From Acinetobacter sp. YWS30-1 (lineage in GTDB: Bacteria; Pseudomonadota; Gammaproteobacteria; Pseudomonadales; Moraxellaceae), in contig NZ_CP114606.1 of NCBI RefSeq assembly GCF_033558715.1, positions 1,178,001 through 1,242,000 of the forward strand: a DNA stretch of 64,000 nt, read 5' to 3'. Made by a program: the position numbers and the translations under genes. Below, in pieces: positions 312-20,601 of this stretch. Below the pieces are notes generated by a model. It was not told the origin of the DNA and searched no databases. It worked only from the letters and a program-made list of their open reading frames with translations. Numbering within the stretch: position 1 is the first letter of the stretch; each line of letters begins with the position of its first letter.

Positions 312-667
312 CCAGTTTTATCTCAAAATAATTTTCAATTTTTGGTCTTTGCTACGCTCTACTTAATGTCTTTATTTGAGATTAAAAATGGGTTTTGTGA
401 TTAATAGAAATGAATCTGAATTAACTGAAAACATTGAACAATCTGAAGTATTCAGCATTGTTCAGATAAAGCCTTTCTTATTGAGTTACAACACGGTATG
501 TAAGCTTCTAGGTATAGAAAGAAACGCATTGCGAAATTTAATGAAGAAAGATGACAGCTTCCCAGAACCCTTGAAAATGGGGCAATCTCGTCAAGCAGCT
601 GTCTATTTTGATCGGGAAGAAATTGAAGTGAACCGTACCGGGTTTGTCGGAGACTTTTTTATTTAAG

Positions 668-1570
668 TTAGGCCACCTGACCTAACGGGTTAATCTTATC
701 ATAGTACATTGCTTCAAACTCAAAAGGCGATACATAACCCAGTGCACTGTGTACACGCTTTTTATTGAACCAATCTACCCAGTTTAGTGTCGCAAGTTGT
801 ACATCTGCTAAACCTTGCCAATCTGCTTTTAGATATTCAATTACCTCTGTTTTGTATAAGCCATTCACCGTTTCAGCCAAAGCATTATCGTATGAATCAC
901 CAGTCGTACCGACTGATGCTCGTAAATTTGCTGCTTCTAAACGATTGGTATAGCGAATGGAAAGATATTGCACACCTCTGTCGGAATGATGAATCACATT
1001 CTTTGGCATGCCGCGATCATGCAATGCTTGCTCCAATGCATCGAGCACCATATCTGTATTCATCCGTGTAGATACTTTCCATCCAACAATTGCTCGTGAA
1101 AACACATCAATAATAAAGGCGGTATAGACCCAGCCTGAATGAGTTTGAATATACGTAAAGTCACCGACCCATAGTTGGTTTGGATGATCAGCACTAAAAT
1201 TACGTTTCACTAAATCATCTGCCCGTTTTTGGTCATCCCGGCTACGGGTAGTTTGTTTATTCTTACCGCGCCAAACACCTTGTATACCTAGCTTCTGCAT
1301 CAATCGAGCAACTGTACAACGTGCAATCACATAGCCTTCACGTTTCAGTTGTTGCCAGACCTTACGCACACCGTATCGACCTGAACTTTCTTTCCAAATT
1401 CGTTTAATCTCCTCAGCATGATGCAAGTCATGTAAATCTCGCTTTGCTCGATGTTCTGGATTTTCGCAGAGATCTAGAGTCCGGTAATAGGTTGAAGGTG
1501 CGATCGGTAAAATTCTACAAATCGCCTCGACTCCGTACAGCTCTTTATTATTATGGATAAAATCCACCAT
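668..1570 (-). CDS. IS3-family transposase OrfB (DDE integrase domain)
   Basis: This 300-residue protein has an N-terminal HTH_21-like segment (YGVEAICRILPIAPSTYY) and an rve/DDE core. The core shows the acidic positions in LWVGDFTY, VIHHSDRGVQY and SYDNALAETVNGLYK. It is normally made as an OrfAB fusion by -1 frameshifting from orfA, whose TAA overlaps the orfB ATG. The protein is identical to the OrfB at 11,788-12,690, so it appears intact and possibly active. Confidence 0.95.
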   Translation of the reverse strand: MVDFIHNNKELYGVEAICRILPIAPSTYYRTLDLCENPEHRAKRDLHDLHHAEEIKRIWKESSGRYGVRKVWQQLKREGYVIARCTVARLMQKLGIQGVWRGKNKQTTRSRDDQKRADDLVKRNFSADHPNQLWVGDFTYIQTHSGWVYTAFIIDVFSRAIVGWKVSTRMNTDMVLDALEQALHDRGMPKNVIHHSDRGVQYLSIRYTNRLEAANLRASVGTTGDSYDNALAETVNGLYKTEVIEYLKADWQGLADVQLATLNWVDWFNKKRVHSALGYVSPFEFEAMYYDKINPLGQVA

Positions 1571-1887
1571 TATTTGTGTGGGCGGTCGAGCTCCGCCTGG
1601 GCGAAAAAAGCGGCTGCTTTACGTAGAATTTCATTGGCGCGTTGCAGTTCTTTATTTTCGCGTTCGAGTTGTTTGATACGTTCTTGGTCTGAAAGCTGCT
1701 GTACTTTAACTGGATTTTGTTTATCTAAATATTTTTGATACCAAACACGTAGTGTTTCAGGAGTACAACCTATCTTGGGAGCAATAGCGGTGATCGCAGC
1801 CCAATTCGATGGATAATCTTTTTCAGATTCAATCAATAATTGAACCGCTCTTTCTCTGATTTCAGGGGTATATTTTAATTTTGTCAT
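1570..1887 (-). CDS. IS3-family transposase OrfA (HTH_Tnp_1)
   Basis: This 105-residue protein has an HTH (YTPEIRERAVQLLIESEK...GCTPETLRVWYQKY) that recognises the IS ends, followed by a C-terminal leucine-zipper-like coiled coil (QERIKQLERENKELQRANE). Near its end, on the minus strand, is the slippery heptamer TTTTTTC (1603-1609 in plus coordinates) followed by a GC-rich hairpin. This is the expected -1 frameshift signal that produces the OrfAB transposase. Confidence 0.93.
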   Translation of the reverse strand: MTKLKYTPEIRERAVQLLIESEKDYPSNWAAITAIAPKIGCTPETLRVWYQKYLDKQNPVKVQQLSDQERIKQLERENKELQRANEILRKAAAFFAQAELDRPHK

Positions 1888-1979
1888 CGGGATAGTCTCT
1901 CAGAATATTGACTCTCCGACAAACCCGGTACGGTTCAAAGTCTGGTATCAAAGGTTTAAAGAAAGATGCCGAGGTCAAA

Positions 1980-4396: not shown

Positions 4397-6304
4397 CTAA
4401 TTCCATTCTTTCCCATAATCTGCCAAAGACGGTTCTGCATTTGCCACATACAAAATACTGCTCTTCCCTGTTTTAAGACGTGTAATTGCGGTATAGAACA
4501 AGGCATGGTCTTTGAGTTGATAGATTTTATCCCAAACCACCAATAGCGCCTTAGCTTCCCAACCTTTAAAACTGTGTACCGTACAGACTTTAATACGGGT
4601 ATCGCCTTTAAAAAACCACATCTTTTTTTGGCGAGATTCAATCGGATCTTTAGAAAAAATATCAATATATTTTAAACCCAGACACTCTAATACTTTGCAG
4701 ACCAACAATCCAATATCATGTGTCTGTACAAGAATGGTCATATCCGAATGACTTAACTCTAACTGAATGACTTCATTCTTAAAACTCTTAAATTCATCTA
4801 GAAACGCAGTTTCTGTGATTTCAGGTAAATTGCGCCATACTAATGTAGCCTCTTCGATGACACCAAAATCTAAAGCACCTTGTAGCTCATTTTTAGACTC
4901 TGACTTAATCACTTTTTCTATTGGTAAGAAGAGCTCTGCATATCGGTTGGCTAAGGGAATCAAATTATCAGGTAAACGATACGTCTGTTTTAGTTCTGCC
5001 CAGGCTCCACGAAAACCAGCATTTTTCATGACATCATCTGTCCACAAATCAGCAGATGCATAGATATCCTGTGTTGTATCAGCACATAACAACATTTCAC
5101 CGCCATCGGCTAATAATTTCTTAAGAATATCCCACCACTGAGGATTAAAGTCTTGCCCTTCATCCACCAAGATTGCATCATATTTTTCTGGTTCACTTAT
5201 ATCTAAAGCATTTTGTACTATACTGCACAATGCAGCTGACGATGGGAAATCAGAGACTTTAGCATTTGGATCTTTTTTTAATGCTTCTTCCGCAGTTTTT
5301 TTTGCATTTATGAAAACCTCAGCATACTCACGCTCTAATCCAGCGTCATAACACAATCGTCGACATAAATAATGAAAATTAATCCAAGTCGCCGCTTTAC
5401 GTATATGTGGATATTCACGTACTGCTAAATCCTGAAGGTAATTTAGTAGTGTGATATTAAAAGTGACAATCAAAACCGACTTTTGCTCTTTCAGAAGTGT
5501 TGCAGCTCGCCCTGCAACAACCACAGACTTACCTGATCCCGCTGGACCTTTCAAACGCCTAAAGCCTGAATCAGTTCTTTCTTTAATAAATTTAAGTTGT
5601 TGGGGATTATAATTTAATGGTTCTCGTTGCTCTTTACTTGATTCTGGTTCTCGAAGCCATACTCTCAATTGCTCAGCAATGATGTTATTCATATACTTAG
5701 ATGATATTCGGGCAATACCCGTTGGAAAATTTTCAATTAATCCTTTTTGAAAATTATCTCTTCCAAAAACAACGTAACTATTATGTTTATCATCTTCAGT
5801 CGGTTTAAATATCTTACGATTCCGACTTTGGAATATTGGATAGAATAATTGTTCAATCTCCTTTTCAGATGCCGATGGCAAAACAAGTCCGCAAGACACC
5901 ACCACTCCGTATTCACGGCGACTTAGAATAGGACAATAAAGGTCTAAAATTTCTTTTCGATATAGTAATAATTGATCAACAGGGTTTTTCTTAACATACG
6001 AAATTTTTTCGCCTTGGGAGTTTACTGCATAAAGGTGTTTTTTCCCGTTACTAAACTCTTCAATGCCATATTGCATGGCTTTGAAATCCCAATTTTTAAC
6101 TTCAAAAACACCAATGCCAATCTTAGGATGCAAAATGACGATATCAGGACATAAACCATTCAAATGAGGTTGAATATAAATCTCCCAACCTTGCGGTAAA
6201 TACTGATCTAAGTATTCAATAAATTGAATTTCACCAGCCTCTAAAGGCTGGCGTAATTTATCCCATTGATCTTTAGATGGAGAAATTAAACGGTTATTCA
6301 TCAT
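4397..6304 (-). CDS. NERD-domain, UvrD-like superfamily 1 helicase/ATPase
   Basis: The product is 635 residues. The N-terminus holds a NERD nuclease-like domain (about residues 15-130; PDIVILHPKIGIGVFEVKNW carries the D...ExK pattern of the PD-(D/E)xK fold). The rest is a UvrD-like helicase core: Walker A GPAGSGKS near residue 252, Walker B ILVDEGQDF near 378, and motif V/VI-like CTVHSFKGWEAKALLV near 565 with YTAITRLKTG. Proteins of this layout are common in mobile islands and suspected anti-phage systems, but the role here is inferred. A 53-residue membrane protein gene lies 31 bases upstream on the same strand and may be co-transcribed. The frame is intact. Confidence 0.8.
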   Translation of the reverse strand: MMNNRLISPSKDQWDKLRQPLEAGEIQFIEYLDQYLPQGWEIYIQPHLNGLCPDIVILHPKIGIGVFEVKNWDFKAMQYGIEEFSNGKKHLYAVNSQGEKISYVKKNPVDQLLLYRKEILDLYCPILSRREYGVVVSCGLVLPSASEKEIEQLFYPIFQSRNRKIFKPTEDDKHNSYVVFGRDNFQKGLIENFPTGIARISSKYMNNIIAEQLRVWLREPESSKEQREPLNYNPQQLKFIKERTDSGFRRLKGPAGSGKSVVVAGRAATLLKEQKSVLIVTFNITLLNYLQDLAVREYPHIRKAATWINFHYLCRRLCYDAGLEREYAEVFINAKKTAEEALKKDPNAKVSDFPSSAALCSIVQNALDISEPEKYDAILVDEGQDFNPQWWDILKKLLADGGEMLLCADTTQDIYASADLWTDDVMKNAGFRGAWAELKQTYRLPDNLIPLANRYAELFLPIEKVIKSESKNELQGALDFGVIEEATLVWRNLPEITETAFLDEFKSFKNEVIQLELSHSDMTILVQTHDIGLLVCKVLECLGLKYIDIFSKDPIESRQKKMWFFKGDTRIKVCTVHSFKGWEAKALLVVWDKIYQLKDHALFYTAITRLKTGKSSILYVANAEPSLADYGKEWN

Positions 6305-8069: not shown

Positions 8070-8927
8070 GGATCTGTTGACACTTACTGTTCATAATTAA
8101 CCCTATAACGGTAGCCATAAAAATATACAGGCTAAGGCAACAGAACTTTGATAATTTCTTTTGAGCTTGTCATATCGAGTAGCTATTCCTCTAAATTGCT
8201 TTAATCTACAAAACATATTTTCAACTAAATGCCTGATTTTATATAAATACCAGTCCATATGGTCATTGTTCGATTGGCTATTCGTTTTCTTTGGTATATT
8301 CGCTTTAGTCCCTGTTTTCCTGATCTGTTCACGCAGTGGTTCTGAATCATAGCCTTTATCTGCACATACCACTTTTGTCTCTTTTAAATCTAATGTTGAT
8401 ATTAAATCAGGTGCAACTTTAACATCATGTGTGGTTCCATCGGTAATCATGAAATCAATAGGATTGCCATGTGCATCAACAATCAAATGTATTTTTGAGG
8501 AGTTTCCTCCTGCACTTTTAGAAATAGATTGATTCGCTATGCCGGCAGAATGTTGATGAGCACGTACATGAGAGCCATCAATAAAAATCCACTCCATATC
8601 GGGGCATGAGGCTAGTAATTTGAATAATCTAAGTAACTTACCGCTGCTTGACCAACGATTAAAACGTTTGAAAATAGAGTTTGAATGACCAAAACAAGAA
8701 GGAATATCTCGCCACGGACAACCTGTCCTAATTCTATAGAGAATAGCTTCAATAAAATTGCGTAAATTTGAGTTGTGGTGAATGGATAAATTACGCAGAA
8801 TAACTTTCAACTTTTGCCAATGTTGATCTGTCAGCATGGTACGAGGCATAGCGAATAGTAAAATTGGGTTTGGCGATTTGATTTTACTACTTCGCTATTT
8901 TTTTAAGCTAAAAGTGTCAACACACCC
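8070..8927 (-). mobile_element. IS5-family (IS427-like) insertion sequence
   Basis: The element is 858 bp with imperfect terminal repeats (GGATCTGTTGACACTT at the left, GGGTGTGTTGACACTT read inward at the right). It has a TA target duplication (8068-8069 and 8928-8929), as expected for the IS427 group. It holds one transposase gene on the minus strand. Confidence 0.85.
8103..8849 (-). CDS. IS5-family transposase (DDE)
   Basis: This 248-residue transposase has an N-terminal DUF4096-like segment (LTDQHWQKLKVIL...YRIRTGCPWRDIPSCFG) and a DDE_Tnp_1 core (EWIFIDGSHVRAHQHSAG, KVVCADKGYDSEPLRE, and HLVENMFCRLKQFRGIATRYDKL with the catalytic E). Many IS427-group elements split this protein by a frameshift; here it is one uninterrupted frame, so the element may be active. 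Confidence 0.92.
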   Translation of the reverse strand: MPRTMLTDQHWQKLKVILRNLSIHHNSNLRNFIEAILYRIRTGCPWRDIPSCFGHSNSIFKRFNRWSSSGKLLRLFKLLASCPDMEWIFIDGSHVRAHQHSAGIANQSISKSAGGNSSKIHLIVDAHGNPIDFMITDGTTHDVKVAPDLISTLDLKETKVVCADKGYDSEPLREQIRKTGTKANIPKKTNSQSNNDHMDWYLYKIRHLVENMFCRLKQFRGIATRYDKLKRNYQSSVALACIFLWLPL

Positions 8928-10905: not shown

Positions 10906-11420
10906 GTGTCAGTAGAGCAACACCAACAATTATTATGGAATCAGTTCTTAGAGGCTTGGCCACTTGGGCGACTGAGAAATATGACCATCGAGGAATACTC
11001 CCAGGCTGGAGATAAAGAAAATTTTACATATTGCCTAGAACGGGAAACCAAACCAATAGCAAATATTTTAGGTGGCTCAGCATTTAAGTTCGGTATATTT
11101 CACCGCAGTGCTACGGAAGAAAAACTCGATGGAAAAGGCAAGATATATCAAGATGGATATGCTTGGTTAGAAAAATATGGTGCGACCAAAGAACAAGCAT
11201 TTGCAGAAATTAAAAGACGAATAATTGAAACAATTGAAAATGCACAAACAGGGAATTTAGAAGCTATTGATGCTTTGGATTTTTCACCTGTAGTGAAATG
11301 GAAAATAGCCTTTTTATATCAAAATCAGACACAGCCGAAAATCATCTCTATTTTTTCAAAGACGATGCTGGACTTTCTGACAAAGGATAAAAAGTTAAAT
11401 TATGCTCAGACTTATCAATA
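10906..11420 (+). pseudogene. mcrB: mcrB, 5' part (cut by the tet(M) transposon)
   Basis: This is the first 171 codons of the McrB-type GTPase gene, starting at a GTG (10906) after GGGG. It encodes an N-terminal domain (LLWNQFLEAWPLGRLRNMTIEEYSQAGDKENF...KWKIAFLYQNQ) that recurs later in the same native protein. At 11420 the frame runs into the transposon. The 3' part resumes at 16160 after one copy of the ATA duplication is removed, restoring TYQ-YLIRQQG in frame and a native protein of 962 residues. As it stands the gene is disrupted, so McrBC restriction is probably lost. Confidence 0.85.
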
Positions 11421-11470
11421 TGAACCGTACCGGGTTTGTCGGAGAGTCAATATTCTGAGAGACTATCCCG

Positions 11471-11788
11471 ATGACAAAATTAAAATATACCCCTGAAATC
11501 AGAGAAAGAGCGGTTCAATTATTGATTGAATCTGAAAAAGATTATCCATCGAATTGGGCTGCGATCACCGCTATTGCTCCCAAGATAGGTTGTACTCCTG
11601 AAACACTACGTGTTTGGTATCAAAAATATTTAGATAAACAAAATCCAGTTAAAGTACAGCAGCTTTCAGACCAAGAACGTATCAAACAACTCGAACGCGA
11701 AAATAAAGAACTGCAACGCGCCAATGAAATTCTACGTAAAGCAGCCGCTTTTTTCGCCCAGGCGGAGCTCGACCGCCCACACAAATAA
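11471..11788 (+). CDS. IS3-family transposase OrfA (HTH_Tnp_1), copy 2
   Basis: This 105-residue protein has an N-terminal HTH and a C-terminal coiled coil, identical to the product at 1570-1887. The slippery heptamer T-TTT-TTC lies at 11749-11755 in the correct frame for a -1 shift and is followed by a GGCGG...CCGCC hairpin. The -1 frame is open from there into orfB, so an OrfAB fusion is expected. Confidence 0.93.
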   Translation: MTKLKYTPEIRERAVQLLIESEKDYPSNWAAITAIAPKIGCTPETLRVWYQKYLDKQNPVKVQQLSDQERIKQLERENKELQRANEILRKAAAFFAQAELDRPHK

Positions 11789-12690
11789 TGGTGGATTTTA
11801 TCCATAATAATAAAGAGCTGTACGGAGTCGAGGCGATTTGTAGAATTTTACCGATCGCACCTTCAACCTATTACCGGACTCTAGATCTCTGCGAAAATCC
11901 AGAACATCGAGCAAAGCGAGATTTACATGACTTGCATCATGCTGAGGAGATTAAACGAATTTGGAAAGAAAGTTCAGGTCGATACGGTGTGCGTAAGGTC
12001 TGGCAACAACTGAAACGTGAAGGCTATGTGATTGCACGTTGTACAGTTGCTCGATTGATGCAGAAGCTAGGTATACAAGGTGTTTGGCGCGGTAAGAATA
12101 AACAAACTACCCGTAGCCGGGATGACCAAAAACGGGCAGATGATTTAGTGAAACGTAATTTTAGTGCTGATCATCCAAACCAACTATGGGTCGGTGACTT
12201 TACGTATATTCAAACTCATTCAGGCTGGGTCTATACCGCCTTTATTATTGATGTGTTTTCACGAGCAATTGTTGGATGGAAAGTATCTACACGGATGAAT
12301 ACAGATATGGTGCTCGATGCATTGGAGCAAGCATTGCATGATCGCGGCATGCCAAAGAATGTGATTCATCATTCCGACAGAGGTGTGCAATATCTTTCCA
12401 TTCGCTATACCAATCGTTTAGAAGCAGCAAATTTACGAGCATCAGTCGGTACGACTGGTGATTCATACGATAATGCTTTGGCTGAAACGGTGAATGGCTT
12501 ATACAAAACAGAGGTAATTGAATATCTAAAAGCAGATTGGCAAGGTTTAGCAGATGTACAACTTGCGACACTAAACTGGGTAGATTGGTTCAATAAAAAG
12601 CGTGTACACAGTGCACTGGGTTATGTATCGCCTTTTGAGTTTGAAGCAATGTACTATGATAAGATTAACCCGTTAGGTCAGGTGGCCTAA
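11788..12690 (+). CDS. IS3-family transposase OrfB, copy 2
   Basis: This 300-residue DDE transposase is identical to the product at 668-1570. The acidic catalytic residues are visible in GDFTY, HHSDRG and NALAETVNG. Its ATG overlaps the orfA stop (TAATG). It is intact and is the likely transposase source for moving the composite element, because the other arm's orfB is frameshifted. Confidence 0.95.
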   Translation: MVDFIHNNKELYGVEAICRILPIAPSTYYRTLDLCENPEHRAKRDLHDLHHAEEIKRIWKESSGRYGVRKVWQQLKREGYVIARCTVARLMQKLGIQGVWRGKNKQTTRSRDDQKRADDLVKRNFSADHPNQLWVGDFTYIQTHSGWVYTAFIIDVFSRAIVGWKVSTRMNTDMVLDALEQALHDRGMPKNVIHHSDRGVQYLSIRYTNRLEAANLRASVGTTGDSYDNALAETVNGLYKTEVIEYLKADWQGLADVQLATLNWVDWFNKKRVHSALGYVSPFEFEAMYYDKINPLGQVA

Positions 12691-12729
12691 CTTAAATAAA
12701 AAAGTCTCCGACAAACCCGGTACGGTTCA

Positions 12730-14649
12730 CTAAGTTATTTTATTGAACATATATCGTACTTTATCTATCCGACTATTTGGACGACGGGGCTGGCAAACAG
12801 GTTCACCGGTAGTAACATGGTACCCTTTTAACTCTGTTAAACAAACACTACGTCCATTTGTAAAGAAAGTTAAATCACTACGATATTCTTGAATACACCG
12901 AGCAGGGATTTCTCCACTAAGAATGACCTCATTATTTTTCAATTGAGTGTCTACGATGTTCGCACAATATTTAGGAGCATCGTTGTATGCTCGTGAAAGA
13001 TATTCCTGTGGCGCATAAATTTTAAAACTAAGATATGGCTCTAACAATTCTGTTCCAGCTTTTTTTAAGACTTGTTCCAATACAATAGGAGCAAGCATCC
13101 GAAAATCTGCTGGGGTACTAACAGGGCTATAGTATAAGCCATACTTAAAACAGATTTTACAATCCGTCACATTCCAACCATATAATCCTTGTTCGCAACC
13201 ATAGCGTATCCCTTCCATAACTGCATTTTGAAATGATTGATTTAAGTATCCAAGAGAAACCGAGCTCTCATACTGCATTCCACTTCCCAACGGAAGCGGT
13301 GATACAGATAAACCAATGGAAGCCCAGAAAGGATTTGGCGGCACTTCGATGTGAATGGTATATTCTGCATTTTTTAACGGTCTCTCCATATAAATGACTG
13401 TAGGCTCTTTTAGTTCTATCTCCACATGATACTTTTCTTGCAACAGTGCACTAATCACTTCCATTTGTACTTTCCCTAAGAAAGAAAGTATAATTTCATG
13501 TGTCGTAGAATCCACGTAATATCGTAGAAGCGGATCACTATCTGAGATTTCCAAAAGGGCATCAAGCAACATTTCTCTCTGTTCAGGTTTACTCGGTTCA
13601 ACAGTTGTTTGTAGTAGAGGGTGCGGATTTTCAATCTTTTTTCTCTGTGGCAATAGTTTTGTATCTCCAAGAACACTATTTAACTTCAAAAACTCATTTT
13701 GCAAAATAACAATTTCTCCAGAATAAGCTCTATCAATCTTACATAATTCACCATTTATTGAAGTATACATTTCTGTAACTTTTATTTTTTCTTTTTCTGA
13801 TACTCTAACCGAATCTCGTAAATGTAGTACTCCACTATAAAGGCGTATATATGCAAGACGTTGTCTTTTTTTTGTATATTCAATTTTGAAAACATTTCCG
13901 CAAAGTTCAGACGGACCTCGATGTGTTGATGAATAAAATTTATTCGTAATCACTTCTATAAGGTTATCAATCCCTATATTGTTTTTTGCACTTCCGTGAT
14001 AAACAGGGAACAGGGAACAATTATGAAATCTTATGCTTTCCTCTTGTTCGAGTTCCAATGCTTCTAATGATTTACCGGACATATATTTCTCTAAAAGGTC
14101 ATCGTTTCCCTCTATTACCGTATCCCATTGTTCAGATTCGGTAAAGTTCGTCACACACATATTAGGATACAGTTCTACCTTCTGTTTGATTACAATTTCG
14201 GCAGAAAGTTTCTCTTTAATATCCTGATAAACCGTTGATAAATCAATTCCATTTTGGTCAATCTTATTGATAAAAAAGATTGTGGGAATCCCCATTTTCC
14301 TAAGTGCATGAAATAATATACGAGTTTGTGCTTGTACGCCATCTTTTGCAGAAATCAGTAGAATTGCCCCATCTAAAACTGATAATGAACGATATACTTC
14401 TGCTAAGAAATCCATATGTCCTGGCGTGTCTATGATGTTCACCTTCGTATTTTCCCACTGAAAAGAGGTTATTCCTGTCTGAATTGTAATTCCTCTCTGA
14501 CGTTCTAAAAGCGTATTATCCGTCCTCGTTGTACCTTTGTCCACGCTTCCTAATTCTGTAATCGCTCCACTGTTATATAATAAGCTTTCTGTTAAGGTAG
14601 TTTTTCCTGCATCAACATGAGCTAAAACTCCAATATTAATAATTTTCAT
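12730..14649 (-). CDS. tet(M): Tetracycline-resistance ribosomal protection protein Tet(M)
   Basis: This 639-residue protein is a translation-factor GTPase related to EF-G that releases tetracycline from the ribosome. The G motifs are clear: G1 [10 protein letters not shown]3 DTPGH, G4 NKID. The N-terminus ([15 protein letters not shown]) and C-terminus ([13 protein letters not shown]) match Tet(M) of Tn916-type elements as I know it. The start is the ATG at 14649, eight bases after GGAGG; an in-frame ATG at 14664 would put that GGAGG inside the coding region and is rejected. The TAG stop abuts the IS end with no downstream sequence. The gene looks intact, and its Gram-positive origin contrasts with the host. 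Confidence 0.97.
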
Positions 14650-14664
14650 GTGATTTTCCTCCAT

Positions 14665-14751
14665 TCAAAAACCCAAAAGGGCATAAAAATCCCAGTGATA
14701 AATACTTTTATCACTGGGATTTTTATGCATAACCATAGGTATACAAAGCAT
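14665..14751 (-). CDS. tet(M) leader peptide (orf12-like)
   Basis: This 28-residue leader peptide (MLCIPMVMHKNPSDKSIYHW...) ends with TGA immediately before the tet(M) ribosome binding site. It overlaps the attenuator hairpin, as in Tn916, where ribosome movement through the leader is thought to control read-through into tet(M). It is translated from the ATG at 14751. Confidence 0.8.
   Translation of the reverse strand: MLCIPMVMHKNPSDKSIYHWDFYALLGF
14682..14727 (-). promoter_or_regulatory. tet(M) transcription attenuator hairpin
   Basis: A perfect 21-bp inverted repeat (left arm 14682-14702, right arm 14707-14727, core ATCCCAGTGAT) has a 4-base loop and a U-rich 3' side on the minus strand. 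It lies inside the leader-peptide ORF. In Tn916-type elements the equivalent structure stops transcription unless tetracycline stalls translation. Confidence 0.85.
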
Positions 14752-14781
14752 ACAGATATTCTCTGGATACTTTAGAATCAC

Positions 14782-14811
14782 ATGATAAAGGTATTCTTAA
14801 ACTGGGTACAA
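14782..14811 (-). promoter_or_regulatory. Candidate tet(M) promoter
   Basis: On the minus strand TTGTAC (14806-14811) and TATCAT (14782-14787) are spaced by 18 bases, upstream of the leader peptide. This retained Tn916-like upstream segment ends at 14846, where the right-hand IS begins, so the gene kept its own promoter and attenuator but nothing further upstream. Confidence 0.5.
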
Positions 14812-14896
14812 AAAACTAAGCCCTCCTAAAAAAGGACATCTAATTATGAACCGTCCCGGGATTGTCGGAGACCTAAAACTCTGAGACAATACCCTT

Positions 14897-15214
14897 ATGA
14901 AAAGCAAACAATACCCAACAGAAGTTAAGAAAAGAGCCGTCGAATTACTGATTGAATCACAAAAAGATTATCCCTCATTATGGGCGGCTATCCAAGCCAT
15001 CGCCCCCAAATTTGGCTGCACACCCGAAACCCTACGCTCATGGCATCAAAAGCACCTAGCTAAGCAAAATCCTGTGACCGTTAGCACTGAAAGCCAAGCG
15101 GCTCGTATCGCTGAGCTTGAGCGAGAAATCAGAGAACTCAAACAAGCGAACGAAATTATTCGAAAGGCAGCCGCTTTTTTCGCCCAGGCGGAGCTCGGCC
15201 GCCCACACAAGTGA
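14897..15214 (+). CDS. IS3-family transposase OrfA, second IS type
   Basis: This 105-residue HTH_Tnp_1 protein (YPTEVKKRAVELLIESQKDYP...GCTPETLRSWHQKH) has a coiled-coil tail (ARIAELEREIRELKQANEIIRKAAAFF). It aligns along its whole length with the OrfA of the other IS. The frameshift heptamer TTTTTTC (15175-15181) and the following GC-rich hairpin are conserved. Confidence 0.9.
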   Translation: MKSKQYPTEVKKRAVELLIESQKDYPSLWAAIQAIAPKFGCTPETLRSWHQKHLAKQNPVTVSTESQAARIAELEREIRELKQANEIIRKAAAFFAQAELGRPHK

Positions 15215-16117
15215 TGGTCAAATTCATTGATGATGAAAAAGAAAAATATGGGGTCGAGCCGATTTGTAGAATACTGCCAATTGCCCCATCTAGCTACTAT
15301 CGCGTCAAAGCTGAACAGGAAAACCCAGAGAAGCAAAGTCGACGCAAACAAAGCGACAAACACCTCATGGCACAAATCAAACAGATTTGGCAAGACAGTG
15401 GCTGTCGTTACGGCATTCGTAAAGTCTGGCACAAGCTTAAGCAAGATGGCATGCCAAAGCTTGGTCGCTGTACCGTTACGCCTTATGAAACAGCTAGGTA
15501 TTCAAGGCGTATGGCGAGGCAAAGGCAAAATCACCACCAAACAGCGACCAGGACAACAAAGTCCCGATGATTTGGTCAAACGCAACTTTACTGCAGATAG
15601 CCCAAACAAGCTGTGGGTGGCTGACTTTACCTATATCAAGACCAAAACAGGCTGGGTCTATACCGCCTTTGTCACCGACGTATTCAAGCGAGTTATTGTG
15701 GGTTGGAAAGTATCGAATCATATGGACACTCAGCTAGTTCTAGATGCCCTAAATCAAGCATTAGACGCTAGAGGCAGACCAAGCGGAGTAATTCATCATT
15801 CTGATAAAGGTAGTCAGTATCTATCGATTAAGTACGGTGAACGGCTTAAACAATCGGGGCTTGCCGCATCAGTCGGCACGACAGGTGACTCTTATGATAA
15901 TGCCCTAGCTGAAAGTGTGAATGGGCTATATAAAGCGGAGGTGATTGATTATTTGAAACAGGAATGGGATGGCGTAAATGATGTTGCGCTAGCAACCCTT
16001 GATTGGGTACACTGGTACAACCATGAACGATTGCATTCTACCAATGGATATGTATCGCCTGTTGATGCGGAAAATATCTACTATTGTTCATTAATTCCGT
16101 CAGGCTATGCTGCCTGA
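15214..16117 (+). pseudogene. IS3-family OrfB, frameshifted
   Basis: The first part reads MVKFIDDEKEKYGVEPICRILPIAPSSYY... to CTVT. The frame is then lost near 15479, where the expected ACGCGCCTTATG is ACGCCTTATG, a 2-base loss. The rest (LMKQLGIQGVWRGKGK...DFTYIKTK...HHSDKGSQY...NALAESVNGLYK...) is open in the other frame to the TGA at 16115-16117. With the DDE core split, this element should not move by its own transposase. A sequencing error is the alternative explanation. Confidence 0.85.
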
Positions 16118-16156
16118 CTCAAGCAAACCTGTCTCCGATAAAACCAGGACGGTTCA

Positions 16157-18533
16157 ATATCTAATTCGTCAACAGGGTGATAGATCATTACTGCAGTACA
16201 GTAATGACTTAGTGCAAGAATATATTGATGCGCATCCGAAACAAGGACATTTGACACCCGCTGAAGCAGATGAAATTTTAAATGCAAAATATCCAGATCA
16301 ATATATAAGTCGGCAGAAAATGACAGTGGTCACGAATGAAAATGGTCGTGAAATTGCATTGGTTTTAACAGGTTCTAAAGCGAGTTTCTTTATCGAGATT
16401 GATCCATCTGATACTCAGGATTTTCAATTTCAGTTTAAATCTACGCAAAATGTAGCATCAGGTAAATACACTGAATCTGATGGACGCCACAGTGGATTAA
16501 AATCACAAAGTAAAAATTTGTGGTTAGGTAATAAAATTTATTACATTGAAATTAGCTCTGCAGAAGAATTAGAGAAATTTTGTAATTGGTATGAGCAAAG
16601 CCATGACCAGACTACGGCGCTGGAACGTAAAATTAATGCATTCTTAGAATTATGGCCTGCTGAACGCCTGAAAAATTTAACCGTTGAAGAATATCATCAA
16701 GCTAGAAACAAAGATTGCTTCATTGCTCAGATTGACAGTTTTGATCCAACACAAGGCGATCCTACCTTTGCTTGCTATTTTGATCTTTGGGAGCCAGTCA
16801 GCTTAGGTGACCATGATAAATATCATAATGAAAGACCATATTCATGGAATAAAAGACTTGGAGATAATGCTGAACAGGCCTTTCAGAAGATCAAACAGGA
16901 AATACTAGAGATTGTAGATGCAGCTCAGCGCCGTGATTTAAATGCAATTGCCGATATTCAGTTTACTAAAGGACTGAAATGGATGATTGCGTTTTTGTAT
17001 CAGGACTTTAGCAATCCTTGTGTGATTCCCATAGTAGGGGAAACTAACATAAAAAGGATTGGCTATGAATCCTATGTAAAAACGCCAGTACTAGAGTTTT
17101 TGCCTATTTTACTGGCAGATCAGGGAGATCTAGAGTTTTTCCCATATGTGGAAAAACTATTTGCGAAGGTCAAAAAAGGCTATTTAGATAACAAACAGAA
17201 GAAACAGCAAACTAAAGAATTAATGGAAGAAGTTATGATTCAACAACCTTTAAACCGTATTTTATTTGGTGCAGCAGGGACGGGTAAAACCTTTCATTGC
17301 ATTAATCATGCCTTATCCATCATTGAAAATAAGCCTTTAGATGTTTTAGAGCAAGAAGATCGCACGGTGCTAAAAACACGTTTTGATCAATATAAAGAAC
17401 AAGGTCAAATTAAGTTTGTCACTTTCCACCAAAGCTTTAGCTATGAAGACTTTGTAGAAGGGATTCGGGCTGAAACGGATGAACATGGAAGTTTAACTTA
17501 TAATGTAAAATCTGGAGTTTTCAAAGAAATCTGTGAAGATGCTGAGCTTGAAAGCGAAGTAAAGAGTTCAAAAACTTTAGTTCCTACGGAAGCAAGCATA
17601 AATCAGGTAATTGAGAGTCTTATTCAAAAAGCTAAGTTGGAGGAGCAAACATTTTATACAAAGCGGAATGTTGAATTTAAAGTAACAAGTAATGCATCTG
17701 GTACTTTATTTGCACAAACATCTAAAGATACAAGTATATCTTTATCATTAAGACATATTAAAAATTACCTTAAATTTCAATCTAAAAATATTGTAGATAA
17801 TAGGGCTTATGAATGGGCAATTGCCAATTCATTGAGTTCGGAAATCCAATTTGAAGACATAGACAAACAAATAAAACCTTATGTATTGATTGTTGATGAA
17901 ATTAATCGAGGTAACATTTCTCGTATCTTTGGTGAGCTCATTACCTTAATTGAAGACTCTAAACGTCAAGGTGCTGAAGAAGAATTATCTGTAACGCTGC
18001 CATACTCAAAAGAAGAATTCTGTGTTCCAAGTAATGTCTACATTATTGGCACAATGAACTCGTCAGACCGTTCTTTAACAGGCTTAGACATTGCTTTGCG
18101 CCGTCGCTTTACCTTTGTTGAAATGCCACCGAAGCCAGAGTTATTGAATGATATTGAGGTGGAAGGGGTGAATATTGGCAAGCTATTAGAAGTCATCAAT
18201 CAGCGTATTGAGGTGTTATTAGATCGAGATCACTGTATTGGTCATGCCAACTTTATGAATTTGAAGAAACAGCCAACACTTGAGAATTTAACATTAATCT
18301 TCAAACAAAAAATAATTCCTCAACTTCAGGAGTACTTCTTTGATGATTGGTCAAAAATCAATATGGTGTTAAATGCCAATGGCATGTTGAAGCCTAAAGC
18401 TGTTGAGCGCTCGGTATTATTTCCAAATGTAGATAGTGAGCCAGAAAGGTTCTTCGAAGAACAGAAAACGTGGCAATTGGTAGATACGGCTTTTGATTCG
18501 ATCACAAGCTTTAGCAAAATCATCAAGCATTAA
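16157..18533 (+). pseudogene. mcrB: mcrB, 3' part: AAA+ GTPase of type IV restriction
   Basis: This part holds the motor of McrB, the GTP-driven subunit that loads on modified DNA and activates McrC. In native numbering, Walker A GAAGTGKT is near residue 541, the Walker B and McrB signature VLIVDEINRGNISRIFGE near 747, and ALRRRFTFVEMPP follows. Upstream of the AAA+ domain is a second copy of the N-terminal domain (KINAFLELWPAERLKNLTVEEYHQAR...KWMIAFLYQD), separated from the first by a segment ending in YYIEISSAEELEKFCNWYEQ. The sequence is open from an IS-borne ATG at 16107, so an N-truncated protein with an intact ATPase could still be made. mcrC follows 12 bases later. Confidence 0.9.
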
Positions 18534-18545
18534 TCGGGGATTTAT

Positions 18546-19829
18546 ATGCATGATTTTACCGTGAGAGAATATGCCTTCATCAGCGTTGCTTATGAAGGTT
18601 GTCCTACCTCAAGCTTAGACCATGCTTATATTCCTGAAAAAGCATTTGAGCATCTGTGTGATCTCTCTGCTTCTTTTTCCAAGCATGGCGCAAGAGTCTT
18701 TGAACTTGCAGGACGTAGAAAGATAAAGCTAGACCAGTATGTTGGTGTAATTGAAACGCCGTGTGGTACACGTATAGAGATATTACCGAAGCATGTAGAG
18801 CTGAATGGAACAAGTGATCAAGAGCTTATTTTAGCAGAGCGTAAACTCCTACAAAAAATGTTGAGTGTATCTTTACACTTACCTTATAGAGAGGCAGGGA
18901 GTGCAAATCTAAATCGTTTTAAACAACCTCTGCATGAATGGATTATTACTCAGTTCCTCGCGTCATTTGAGCGTTTATTGCAACGTGGTTTACGATTTGA
19001 CTATAACCGTGTGCAAGAAGAACAAAAGTTTCTACGTGGGCAATTACAGCATGTGAAATATATGCGACAGCCACCTGCAAAGAAACATATATTCCCGATT
19101 GAGCATGATGTTTATGAGGTCAATCGACCTGAGAACCGTCTGATTCGTACAGCGTTGGAAGTCATTTGTAAAAAGACCAAAGATGCGAACAATTGGAAAC
19201 TTGCCCAAGAACTCAGGTTGATGACCAGTGAAATACCACGAAGCCAAAAGATTCAGCAGGATTTTAGACAATGGCAGTCAGGTCGCTTACTTGCGCTATA
19301 TGCTGAGATCAAACCTTGGACAGAATTGATTTTAGGTGAGTACATGCCTGTATCTACACAAGGTGAATGGCGGGGCATGAGTCTATTATTCCCGATGGAA
19401 AAGCTCTTTGAATACTTTGTGGCTTATCATTTGCGCCGTGGATTACCTGAATATCAGGTTAAAACACAGCATGCGACAGAGCATATTTGTGAACATCAAA
19501 TGAGTAAGATATTTAAGTTAAAGCCTGATATTTTTATTGATCGCTCCAAAGCTAAAATGCCGAACATTGTGCTGGATACTAAGTGGAAGCTGATTGATCA
19601 AAATGAGCGTAGTGGACGATATGGCTTAAAGGACAGTGATATTCAGCAGATGTTTGCGTACAGTCACTATTACTTGAAACATGAGAGTGAAGTGATCTTG
19701 GTGTATCCATACCGAGCAGGGAAATTTGACCAACCTCTAGATGATTTTGACTTTAGGCGTACAAGTGGTGCAAAGCTTCGAGTAGTACCGTTTAACTTGG
19801 ATGAGCCAGAAAATTTCAAAATAATTTAA
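18546..19829 (+). CDS. mcrC: McrC, nuclease subunit of McrBC-type restriction
   Basis: This 427-residue partner of McrB cuts DNA. It has an N-terminal McrC domain (VREYAFISV..., VGVIETPCGTRIEILPK) and a C-terminal PD-(D/E)xK nuclease: KPDIFID gives the acidic residue and IVLDTKWK the D-x-K pair, followed by DIQQMFAYSHYY. The start at 18546 follows GGGGA. The gene is intact, but without a full-length McrB it may be inactive. It closes the operon that begins with the HD hydrolase. Confidence 0.9.
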   Translation: MHDFTVREYAFISVAYEGCPTSSLDHAYIPEKAFEHLCDLSASFSKHGARVFELAGRRKIKLDQYVGVIETPCGTRIEILPKHVELNGTSDQELILAERKLLQKMLSVSLHLPYREAGSANLNRFKQPLHEWIITQFLASFERLLQRGLRFDYNRVQEEQKFLRGQLQHVKYMRQPPAKKHIFPIEHDVYEVNRPENRLIRTALEVICKKTKDANNWKLAQELRLMTSEIPRSQKIQQDFRQWQSGRLLALYAEIKPWTELILGEYMPVSTQGEWRGMSLLFPMEKLFEYFVAYHLRRGLPEYQVKTQHATEHICEHQMSKIFKLKPDIFIDRSKAKMPNIVLDTKWKLIDQNERSGRYGLKDSDIQQMFAYSHYYLKHESEVILVYPYRAGKFDQPLDDFDFRRTSGAKLRVVPFNLDEPENFKII

Positions 19830-19989: not shown

Positions 19990-20601
19990 ATGGCTACTAA
20001 AGAAAAAATTGTAATTGATCAATTTTTAAAATTTAAGCAAGGGGGGGTGTTCTGTCGCTTCGATTTTGGTATAGAAATAAGCGATAAAGAACTAAAACGG
20101 ATTTTATATCAATTTATTCAGTCAGGTGAGGTGCAGGTCATCTTGTCTAAAGTTTATTATAAAGTTGAAATGAATAAACTCAGCCAATTTAAAAATAAAC
20201 CGTTGAGTCCTGATATCACTGATGTACTGGAAACTCTGTCGAGAGCCACGGCGCTCAAATTTCAGGTGCATGGTGGAGTCGCTGCTAATCGGCTAGGACT
20301 AAGTACTCAAGTGCCTCTTATTCATGTTTTTTATACAACGGGAAGATCTAGAGATATTAAACTTTACGGGCAAACTGTACGTTTCATCCGTACTCGTTGT
20401 TTAGATGTATTCCAGTATGCTTATAAGCCAGTTGGATTGGCAATTTCCGCATTATATTTTTTAGGTCCACAAATTGTTAATGGAGTTATGATTAAGCAGT
20501 TAAAAAAAACATTGGGTGAAAATGACTATCAGAGGTTGATAAAAGCTAAAAAACCGTTATGGATAGAAAATAGGATATTGGAAGTTGAAAAAAAATATTA
20601 A
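19990..20601 (+). CDS. AbiEi-like (DUF6088-type) protein
   Basis: This 203-residue protein has a winged-helix N-terminus (KEKIVIDQFLKFKQGGVFCRFDFG...RILYQFIQSGEVQVILSKVYYKV) followed by a domain like the AbiEi/DUF6088 group (KFQVHGGVAANRLGLSTQVPLIHVFYTTGRSRDIKLYG). AbiEi proteins act as antitoxins and autorepressors of type IV toxin-antitoxin pairs with the nucleotidyltransferase AbiEii. No AbiEii gene is present here; the next gene is a HipB-like regulator. A run of seven G (20041-20047) lies within codons GGG GGG GTG. The assignment is by recalled family pattern. Confidence 0.6.
   Translation: MATKEKIVIDQFLKFKQGGVFCRFDFGIEISDKELKRILYQFIQSGEVQVILSKVYYKVEMNKLSQFKNKPLSPDITDVLETLSRATALKFQVHGGVAANRLGLSTQVPLIHVFYTTGRSRDIKLYGQTVRFIRTRCLDVFQYAYKPVGLAISALYFLGPQIVNGVMIKQLKKTLGENDYQRLIKAKKPLWIENRILEVEKKY

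What the first reader, a model, noticed from the sequence alone, without database searches (positions are those of the whole stretch)
11421..16156. tet(M) carried by a composite transposon with two different IS3-family ends
tet(M) is bounded by a 1,309-bp IS on one side and a related but distinct 1,310-bp IS on the other, in the same orientation. The outer flanks share a 3-bp duplication (ATA) that the inner flanks lack, and mcrB is restored in frame when the unit is removed. So the whole unit moved once as a block, apparently using mismatched but similar ends. Composite transposons normally have two copies of the same IS. Tet(M) is usually spread by Tn916-type conjugative elements, not by such a unit.
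Basis: partly seen in the sequence, partly recalled or inferred. Interest (0 to 1): 0.85.

Follow-up and report, generated by a model that had tools for sequence, protein, structure and literature searches.

The report
Resistance transposon with mismatched ends
A tetracycline-resistance gene in this Acinetobacter genome sits between two different but related insertion sequences, and the whole block was copied once from a plasmid into the chromosome, a rare but already described type of hybrid transposon.

Summary
Window 11421-16156 is a 4,736-bp unit: left IS (1,309 bp), a 2,117-bp Tn916-type tet(M) segment, right IS (1,310 bp, 67% identical to the left). It lies inside a McrB-type gene between ATA repeats. 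Four other Acinetobacter alleles have exactly one codon at that point, so ATA is a real 3-bp target duplication. The genome carries an identical unit on a 162-kb contig, at a site shared with A. variabilis plasmid pXM9F202-2-186k and without outer duplication. The block therefore moved plasmid to chromosome. The left IS is a common Acinetobacter element; the listed long, 80%-or-better relatives of the right IS are in Moraxella, apart from three tet(M) plasmids of Acinetobacter. Both right-IS copies here have a broken orfB and no other copy was found. The likeliest transposase is therefore that of the left IS, acting on its own end and on a foreign end matching 21 of 25 bases. That enzyme step is inferred. 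The kind is known: Tn2114, described in PMC8438517 as ISAba21 plus ISAba14 ends. Verdict: real, a new member of a known kind.

The parts
11418..11420 (.). left target-site duplication ATA
11421..12729 (+). left IS (IS3 family, Acinetobacter-resident), IRL 11421-11445, IRR 12705-12729
11471..11788 (+). left IS orfA (HTH_Tnp_1)
11746..11862 (+). ALIL pseudoknot (Rfam RF01497) at the orfA/orfB overlap, starting at a T6C run
11788..12690 (+). left IS orfB (HTH_21, rve), open throughout
12730..14846 (-). 2,117-bp tet(M) segment of Tn916 type (contained in pCF10 and many other plasmids)
12730..14664 (-). tet(M) (NCBIfam model starts at residue 6, i.e. ATG at 14649)
14681..14866 (-). tet(M) leader and terminator-like hairpin (RF02864 at 14705-14866; perfect 22-bp arms 14681-14702/14707-14728); about 20 nt at the leader's 5' end replaced by the right IS end
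14847..16156 (+). right IS (IS3 family, Moraxella type), IRL 14847-14872, IRR 16131-16156
14897..15214 (+). right IS orfA
15172..15288 (+). ALIL pseudoknot (RF01497) of the right IS
15211..16117 (+). right IS orfB, reading frame broken between HTH_21 and rve parts (pieces listed at 15211-15570 and 15227-16117); the A. variabilis copy has an open orfB
16157..16159 (.). right target-site duplication ATA
10906..11420 (+). 5' part of the interrupted McrB-type gene
16160..18533 (+). 3' part of the interrupted McrB-type gene (AAA_5)

Best explanation
The unit is a hybrid composite transposon. The outer left end of an Acinetobacter IS3-family element and the outer right end of a related Moraxella-type IS acted as the two ends of one transposon carrying tet(M). 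Shown: a complete identical copy on a 162-kb contig (a plasmid, by its 16-kb match to a known one) and one in the chromosome; a true 3-bp target duplication around the chromosomal copy only; a plasmid site shared with another strain's plasmid. So one block copy went from plasmid to chromosome. Inferred: copy-out/paste-in transposition through a circle, as known for the IS3 family, with the OrfAB transposase of the left IS supplying the activity, because both right-IS copies in this genome have the same broken orfB and no other right IS was found.
For: Identical 4,736-bp unit at C1 and C2 (2 of 34 matches cover the whole query). True duplication at the chromosomal site against four empty alleles. 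Plasmid site is the same as in NZ_CP060812.1 (16 kb at 99.9%), and there the unit joins two sequences that other plasmids carry apart, so no duplication is expected. The short deletion and two substitutions of the right IS relative to CP060812 are shared by both copies in this genome. CP060812 has an open orfB, and it, p34AB and pABF9692 all lack the deletion, so the deletion is the derived state and the chromosomal copy came from the plasmid copy after orfB broke. The left IS is open and recently active here: two further 100% identical chromosomal copies, with 3-bp duplications AAG and CAG. The best other match to the right-IS transposase in this genome is the left IS at 66%. Unit ends match at 21 of 25 positions; the right IS's own two ends match at 22 of 26.
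Against: Cross-recognition was not tested. Of the four mismatches between the unit ends, C at position 9 and T at 14 never occur among the ends of 23 left-type copies; T at 11 and A at 18 occur in one copy each, neither with a duplication. Gene conversion between the two units, a right IS now lost, or a polishing error shared by the repeats could also give the shared broken orfB. Only one such block move is seen: 30-base junction probes match 1 of 72,556 plasmid records, and the left junction only the own genome of 175 genus genomes.
Confidence: 0.82

Rival explanations
1. The block moved as a unit, but the transposase came from an intact right-type IS (another plasmid, since lost), or both enzymes acted together.
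For: An open right IS exists in the sister plasmid of A. variabilis. More distant right-type relatives (69-71% identical) also make 3-bp duplications: 5 of 22 copies, this genome's own plasmid copy (no duplication) among the 22.
Against: No other right IS was found in this genome; both copies share the broken frame.
Confidence: 0.13
2. Two-step assembly in the chromosome: a single IS inserted at ATA, and the rest came later by homologous recombination with the plasmid.
For: The left IS is present elsewhere on the chromosome and on the plasmid, so homology for recombination exists.
Against: Recombination through a resident left IS would leave plasmid sequence or a second left IS at the right side; instead the right IS ends exactly at the second ATA and the unit is identical on both replicons.
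Confidence: 0.04
3. Assembly artefact or chance flank match.
For: Two identical 4.7-kb repeats can mislead assembly; a 3-mer match has chance about 0.018.
Against: Independent empty alleles put both ATA copies on one codon; the plasmid site is independently known in another strain.
Confidence: 0.01

Closest known systems
Tn2114 (hybrid composite transposon, blaRTG-5, A. baumannii)
   Same: Two different IS3-family elements (left end ISAba21, right end ISAba14) bound a resistance gene in Acinetobacter, per a discussion passage of PMC8438517; a passage of PMC7653874 calls it an active composite transposon. The original paper (Bonnin 2012) was not read; its title is in reference lists.
   Different: Different IS pair and cargo. 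ISAba14 as annotated in pNDM-BJ01 shares only 11-base matches with the arms at DNA level and 34-38% identical stretches by tblastx; PMC12540391 lists it in the IS150 group. ISAba21 was not compared. Here one arm is of Moraxella type and has a broken transposase gene.
ISAba14-bounded blaNDM/aphA6 region in A. variabilis AV_175
   Same: IS3-family composite block with 3-bp duplications, described in PMC12904642 (passages).
   Different: Two copies of the same IS.
tet(M) regions of p34AB and pABF9692 (A. baumannii)
   Same: Left-type IS, tet(M) segment with the same 5' breakpoint, and right IS at 99.6-99.8%.
   Different: tet(M) lies in the opposite orientation with 68 bp more 3' flank, both IS are split at the same position by an insert with a group II intron reverse transcriptase, and outer flanks in p34AB are GTA/CTA, i.e. 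no duplication.
Tn916/Tn925-type tet(M) elements (pCF10; the Tn925 label is recalled)
   Same: The 2,117-bp segment is contained in pCF10.
   Different: No conjugation or integrase genes; only tet(M), its leader and short flanks.

Membership tests
Composite transposon | IS at both ends of the cargo, moving as one unit with a target duplication only outside | tested here: met
Composite transposon (classical) | two copies of the same IS | tested here: not met
   67.1% nucleotide identity between arms
Hybrid composite transposon of Tn2114 kind | ends supplied by two different IS of one family | tested here: met
   pieces of both arms match NF033516 IS3 family transposase, the orfB parts above cut-off in the left arm and in the downstream piece of the right arm; different lineages
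IS3 family (both arms) | orfA/orfB in overlapping frames, DDE integrase core, frameshift signal, IRs with 3-bp duplications | tested here: met
   duplications in 8 of 23 left-type copies and 5 of 22 right-type ones, the latter mostly 69-71% relatives; right-arm orfB broken in this genome
IS51 group of IS3 | ISfinder group assignment | not testable with these tools
Tn916 family | conjugation module, int/xis | tested here: not met
   unit holds only tet(M) and leader between the IS
One transposase acting on both mixed ends | circle or transposition with left OrfAB on left IRL plus right IRR | not testable with these tools
   inferred from shared broken orfB and absence of another right IS

The most novel reading that the evidence does not exclude
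A resident Acinetobacter transposase uses the end of a transposase-dead Moraxella IS as a passive partner end, so that any cargo lying between a resident IS and a stray related IS end becomes mobile. The second IS need not be the same, nor functional.
Probability: 0.65. Interest if true: 0.5.

Novelty: new member of a known kind. Interest (0 to 1): 0.4.

Why it matters
Scans for mobile resistance genes commonly look for two copies of the same IS (general knowledge, not searched). This case has donor copy, new copy, target duplication and empty alleles all visible, and shows that a pair of IS only 67% identical can move cargo as one block. It also shows a tet(M) segment of Gram-positive type packaged by Moraxella and Acinetobacter elements and copied from a plasmid to a chromosome. 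It makes end cross-recognition in IS3-family elements directly testable.

Tried and rejected
Left IS as ISAba14: rejected (group); left without a name. Chance ATA match: rejected. Right arm added later: rejected. Programmed frameshift as reason for the apparent orfB break: both arms have the same ALIL signal at the orfA/orfB overlap, but the right orfB break lies further downstream, between the HTH_21 and rve pieces, so it is a second, separate interruption. tet(M) promoter: the scan gives one minus-strand candidate at 14994-14967 against 1.5 expected by chance, so nothing is claimed. An RNA fold of the left frameshift region alone was unremarkable (z -0.91); the Rfam model is the better evidence. 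Duplication counts: one search used fixed offsets and misplaced some loci (L069, L107, L108, L114, L116); one search recomputed them from BLAST ends and only its counts are used, except for the AAG and CAG flanks of this genome's copies. One search dropped copies lacking a full end or a flank and copies with repeated flanks, and drew on the loci kept only, not on all matches; one further right-type copy (L101) has a 4-bp repeat.

Full report
What is there. Window 11421-16156 is a 4,736-bp unit made of a left IS (11421-12729), a 2,117-bp tet(M) segment (12730-14846, tet(M) on the minus strand) and a right IS (14847-16156). Both IS have an HTH orfA, orfB parts with HTH_21 and an integrase core, matches to NCBIfam's IS3-family transposase model and Rfam's ALIL pseudoknot (RF01497, 89.4 and 100.7 bits) over a T6C run at the orfA/orfB overlap. 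They are 67.1% identical over 1,331 aligned columns; OrfA is 69% identical, the upstream part of OrfB 55% and the downstream part 66%. tet(M) scores 1514 against the Tet(M) model with cut-off 1420.

The target. The unit interrupts a McrB-type gene (AAA_5 in the 3' part, followed by a McrC gene with PF10117). The NCBIfam McrB model scores below its cut-off (116 against 637), so the name is a type, not an assignment. The outer flanks are both ATA; the inner flanks are CTA and TTA. Two random 3-mers of the window agree with probability 0.018, so the match needed a test. A 371-bp left-flank probe matched 9 of 175 genus genomes, own included, and all but the own and G053 in pieces of 27-119 bases. 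The right part's protein then gave 80 named loci, kept from 123. I projected the left 171 codons and the right part separately onto 29 loci: L025, L028 and 27 of the 80 (L129-L155). Six have exactly 3 nt between them. These are four distinct alleles because L025 is L130 and L028 is L141: A. lwoffii S246-3, Acinetobacter sp. CFCC 10889, A. nectaris CIP 110549, A. rathckeae EC24. Of the other 23 loci, 16 had no left match and 7 gave overlapping matches, so they say nothing. In L025 both ATA copies align to the same three bases, GCA there. The duplication is real.

The donor. The same genome holds a second unit, identical over all 4,736 bp, on a 162-kb contig (C2:125762-130497, minus strand). Its flanks (TTC and CTT when oriented) are not a duplication. 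A 16-kb stretch around it is 99.9% identical to A. variabilis plasmid pXM9F202-2-186k, whose unit is 99.9% identical. One other plasmid carries the left flank (A. towneri pTT1-3-3) and four others the right flank (e.g. A. baumannii NZ_LR026973.1 with a longer PD-(D/E)XK gene); only pXM9F202-2-186k is in both lists, and in the three records that I opened each flank continues into other sequence. On the plasmid the unit is thus a junction between two formerly separate stretches, which explains the missing duplication. The chromosome, with its clean duplication, received a copy.

Which enzyme. The right-IS orfB is broken between its HTH_21 and integrase parts in both copies of this genome. The A. 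variabilis copy has an open orfB of 302 aa. That copy and those of p34AB and pABF9692 all lack the short deletion that this genome's copies have, at the same place, so the deletion is derived. The chromosomal copy carries it too, so it was copied after the break, barring gene conversion or a shared polishing error. No other right IS was found in the genome: of 34 nucleotide matches only the two units cover it, and of 20 protein matches the next best are left-IS copies at 66%. The left IS is open and has two further identical chromosomal copies with 3-bp duplications, AAG (window 629-1937) and CAG. The simplest reading is that left-IS OrfAB paired its own left end with the right IS right end. 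These match at 21 of 25 positions; the right IS's own ends match at 22 of 26. Among 23 left-type copies, T at position 11 and A at position 18 occur once each, C at 9 and T at 14 never, so cross-recognition is plausible but unproven. IS3-family transposition through figure-of-eight and circle intermediates is described in the abstract openings of PMC3219604 and PMC3299598 (search listings); its use here is inference.

Origins. The left IS matches, in whole or part, 108 of 175 genus genomes and 598 plasmid records, 554 of them Acinetobacter. For the right IS, 335 plasmid records matched and 40 were listed; in the list, records covered for 75% or more at 80% identity or more are NZ_CP060812.1 and Moraxella records, several in 2-3 pieces. 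A. baumannii p34AB and pABF9692 have 99.6-99.8% copies split by an intron-bearing insert. Among 348 family genomes, the listed matches of 80% or more outside this genome fall in one other genus, g7 (list cut). I take g7 to be Moraxella because G194's coordinates repeat those of the M. osloensis YV1 plasmids. A 227-bp right-IS fragment lies beside tet(M) in further Acinetobacter plasmids (L022, L033-L036). The tet(M) segment ends at ATCTAATTA in the window, p34AB, pABF9692 and three floR-tet(M) plasmids (L022, L033, L035), with three different neighbours, all starting TGA, whereas pCF10 and an E. coli plasmid share one other continuation; in two more records (L034, L036) the end was not found intact. 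About 20 nt at the 5' end of the tet(M) leader are replaced by the IS end.

Known or new. 30-base probes of the left and right junctions each match 1 of 72,556 plasmid records, and the left junction only the own genome of 175. Paper searches (listings; passages seen in PMC12904642, PMC8985760, PMC10132078, PMC7653874, PMC12540391, PMC5343135, PMC8468815 and PMC8438517) showed no description of this unit; subscription journals are mostly not held. PMC12904642 lists tet(M) on pXM9F202-2-186k in a table, without its context in the passages seen. But hybrid composite transposons are in print: Tn2114 with ISAba21 and ISAba14 ends. This is a new member of that kind, unusually well documented by sequence, with one arm of another genus's type and transposase-dead.

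Noticed in passing
L064 672-9146; L037; window 12202/12203 equivalent: In p34AB and pABF9692 both the left-type and the right IS are split at the same position (IS position 782/783, in orfB) by an insert with a group II intron reverse transcriptase (ltrA); several left-IS relatives are also split at 782/783, suggesting an intron that homes into these transposase genes.
   Followed up: partly
window 14846/14847; L022, L033, L035, L037, L064: The tet(M) segment has the same 5' breakpoint ATCTAATTA beside three different neighbours, all beginning TGA. Either a hot spot or repeated exchange at IS ends; unexplained.
   Followed up: partly
window 12704-12729 and 14847-14872: The inner IS ends form 26-bp inverted repeats (24 of 26) around tet(M); p34AB has tet(M) in the opposite orientation between the same IS pair, as if inverted through them.
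   Followed up: partly
window 629-1937: A single copy of the left IS, 100% identical, minus strand, with 3-bp duplication AAG; a short ORF that starts at 376 runs into it.
   Followed up: partly
window 4397-6304, 16160-19829, 19990-20601: PADLOC hits: a NERD+UvrD protein and an AbiEi-like protein near the McrBC-type genes, so the unit lies in a defence-rich stretch.
   Followed up: no
window 8103-8849: An ORF on the minus strand that reads like a small DDE transposase of IS5 type (my reading of the translation; no family search was run).
   Followed up: no
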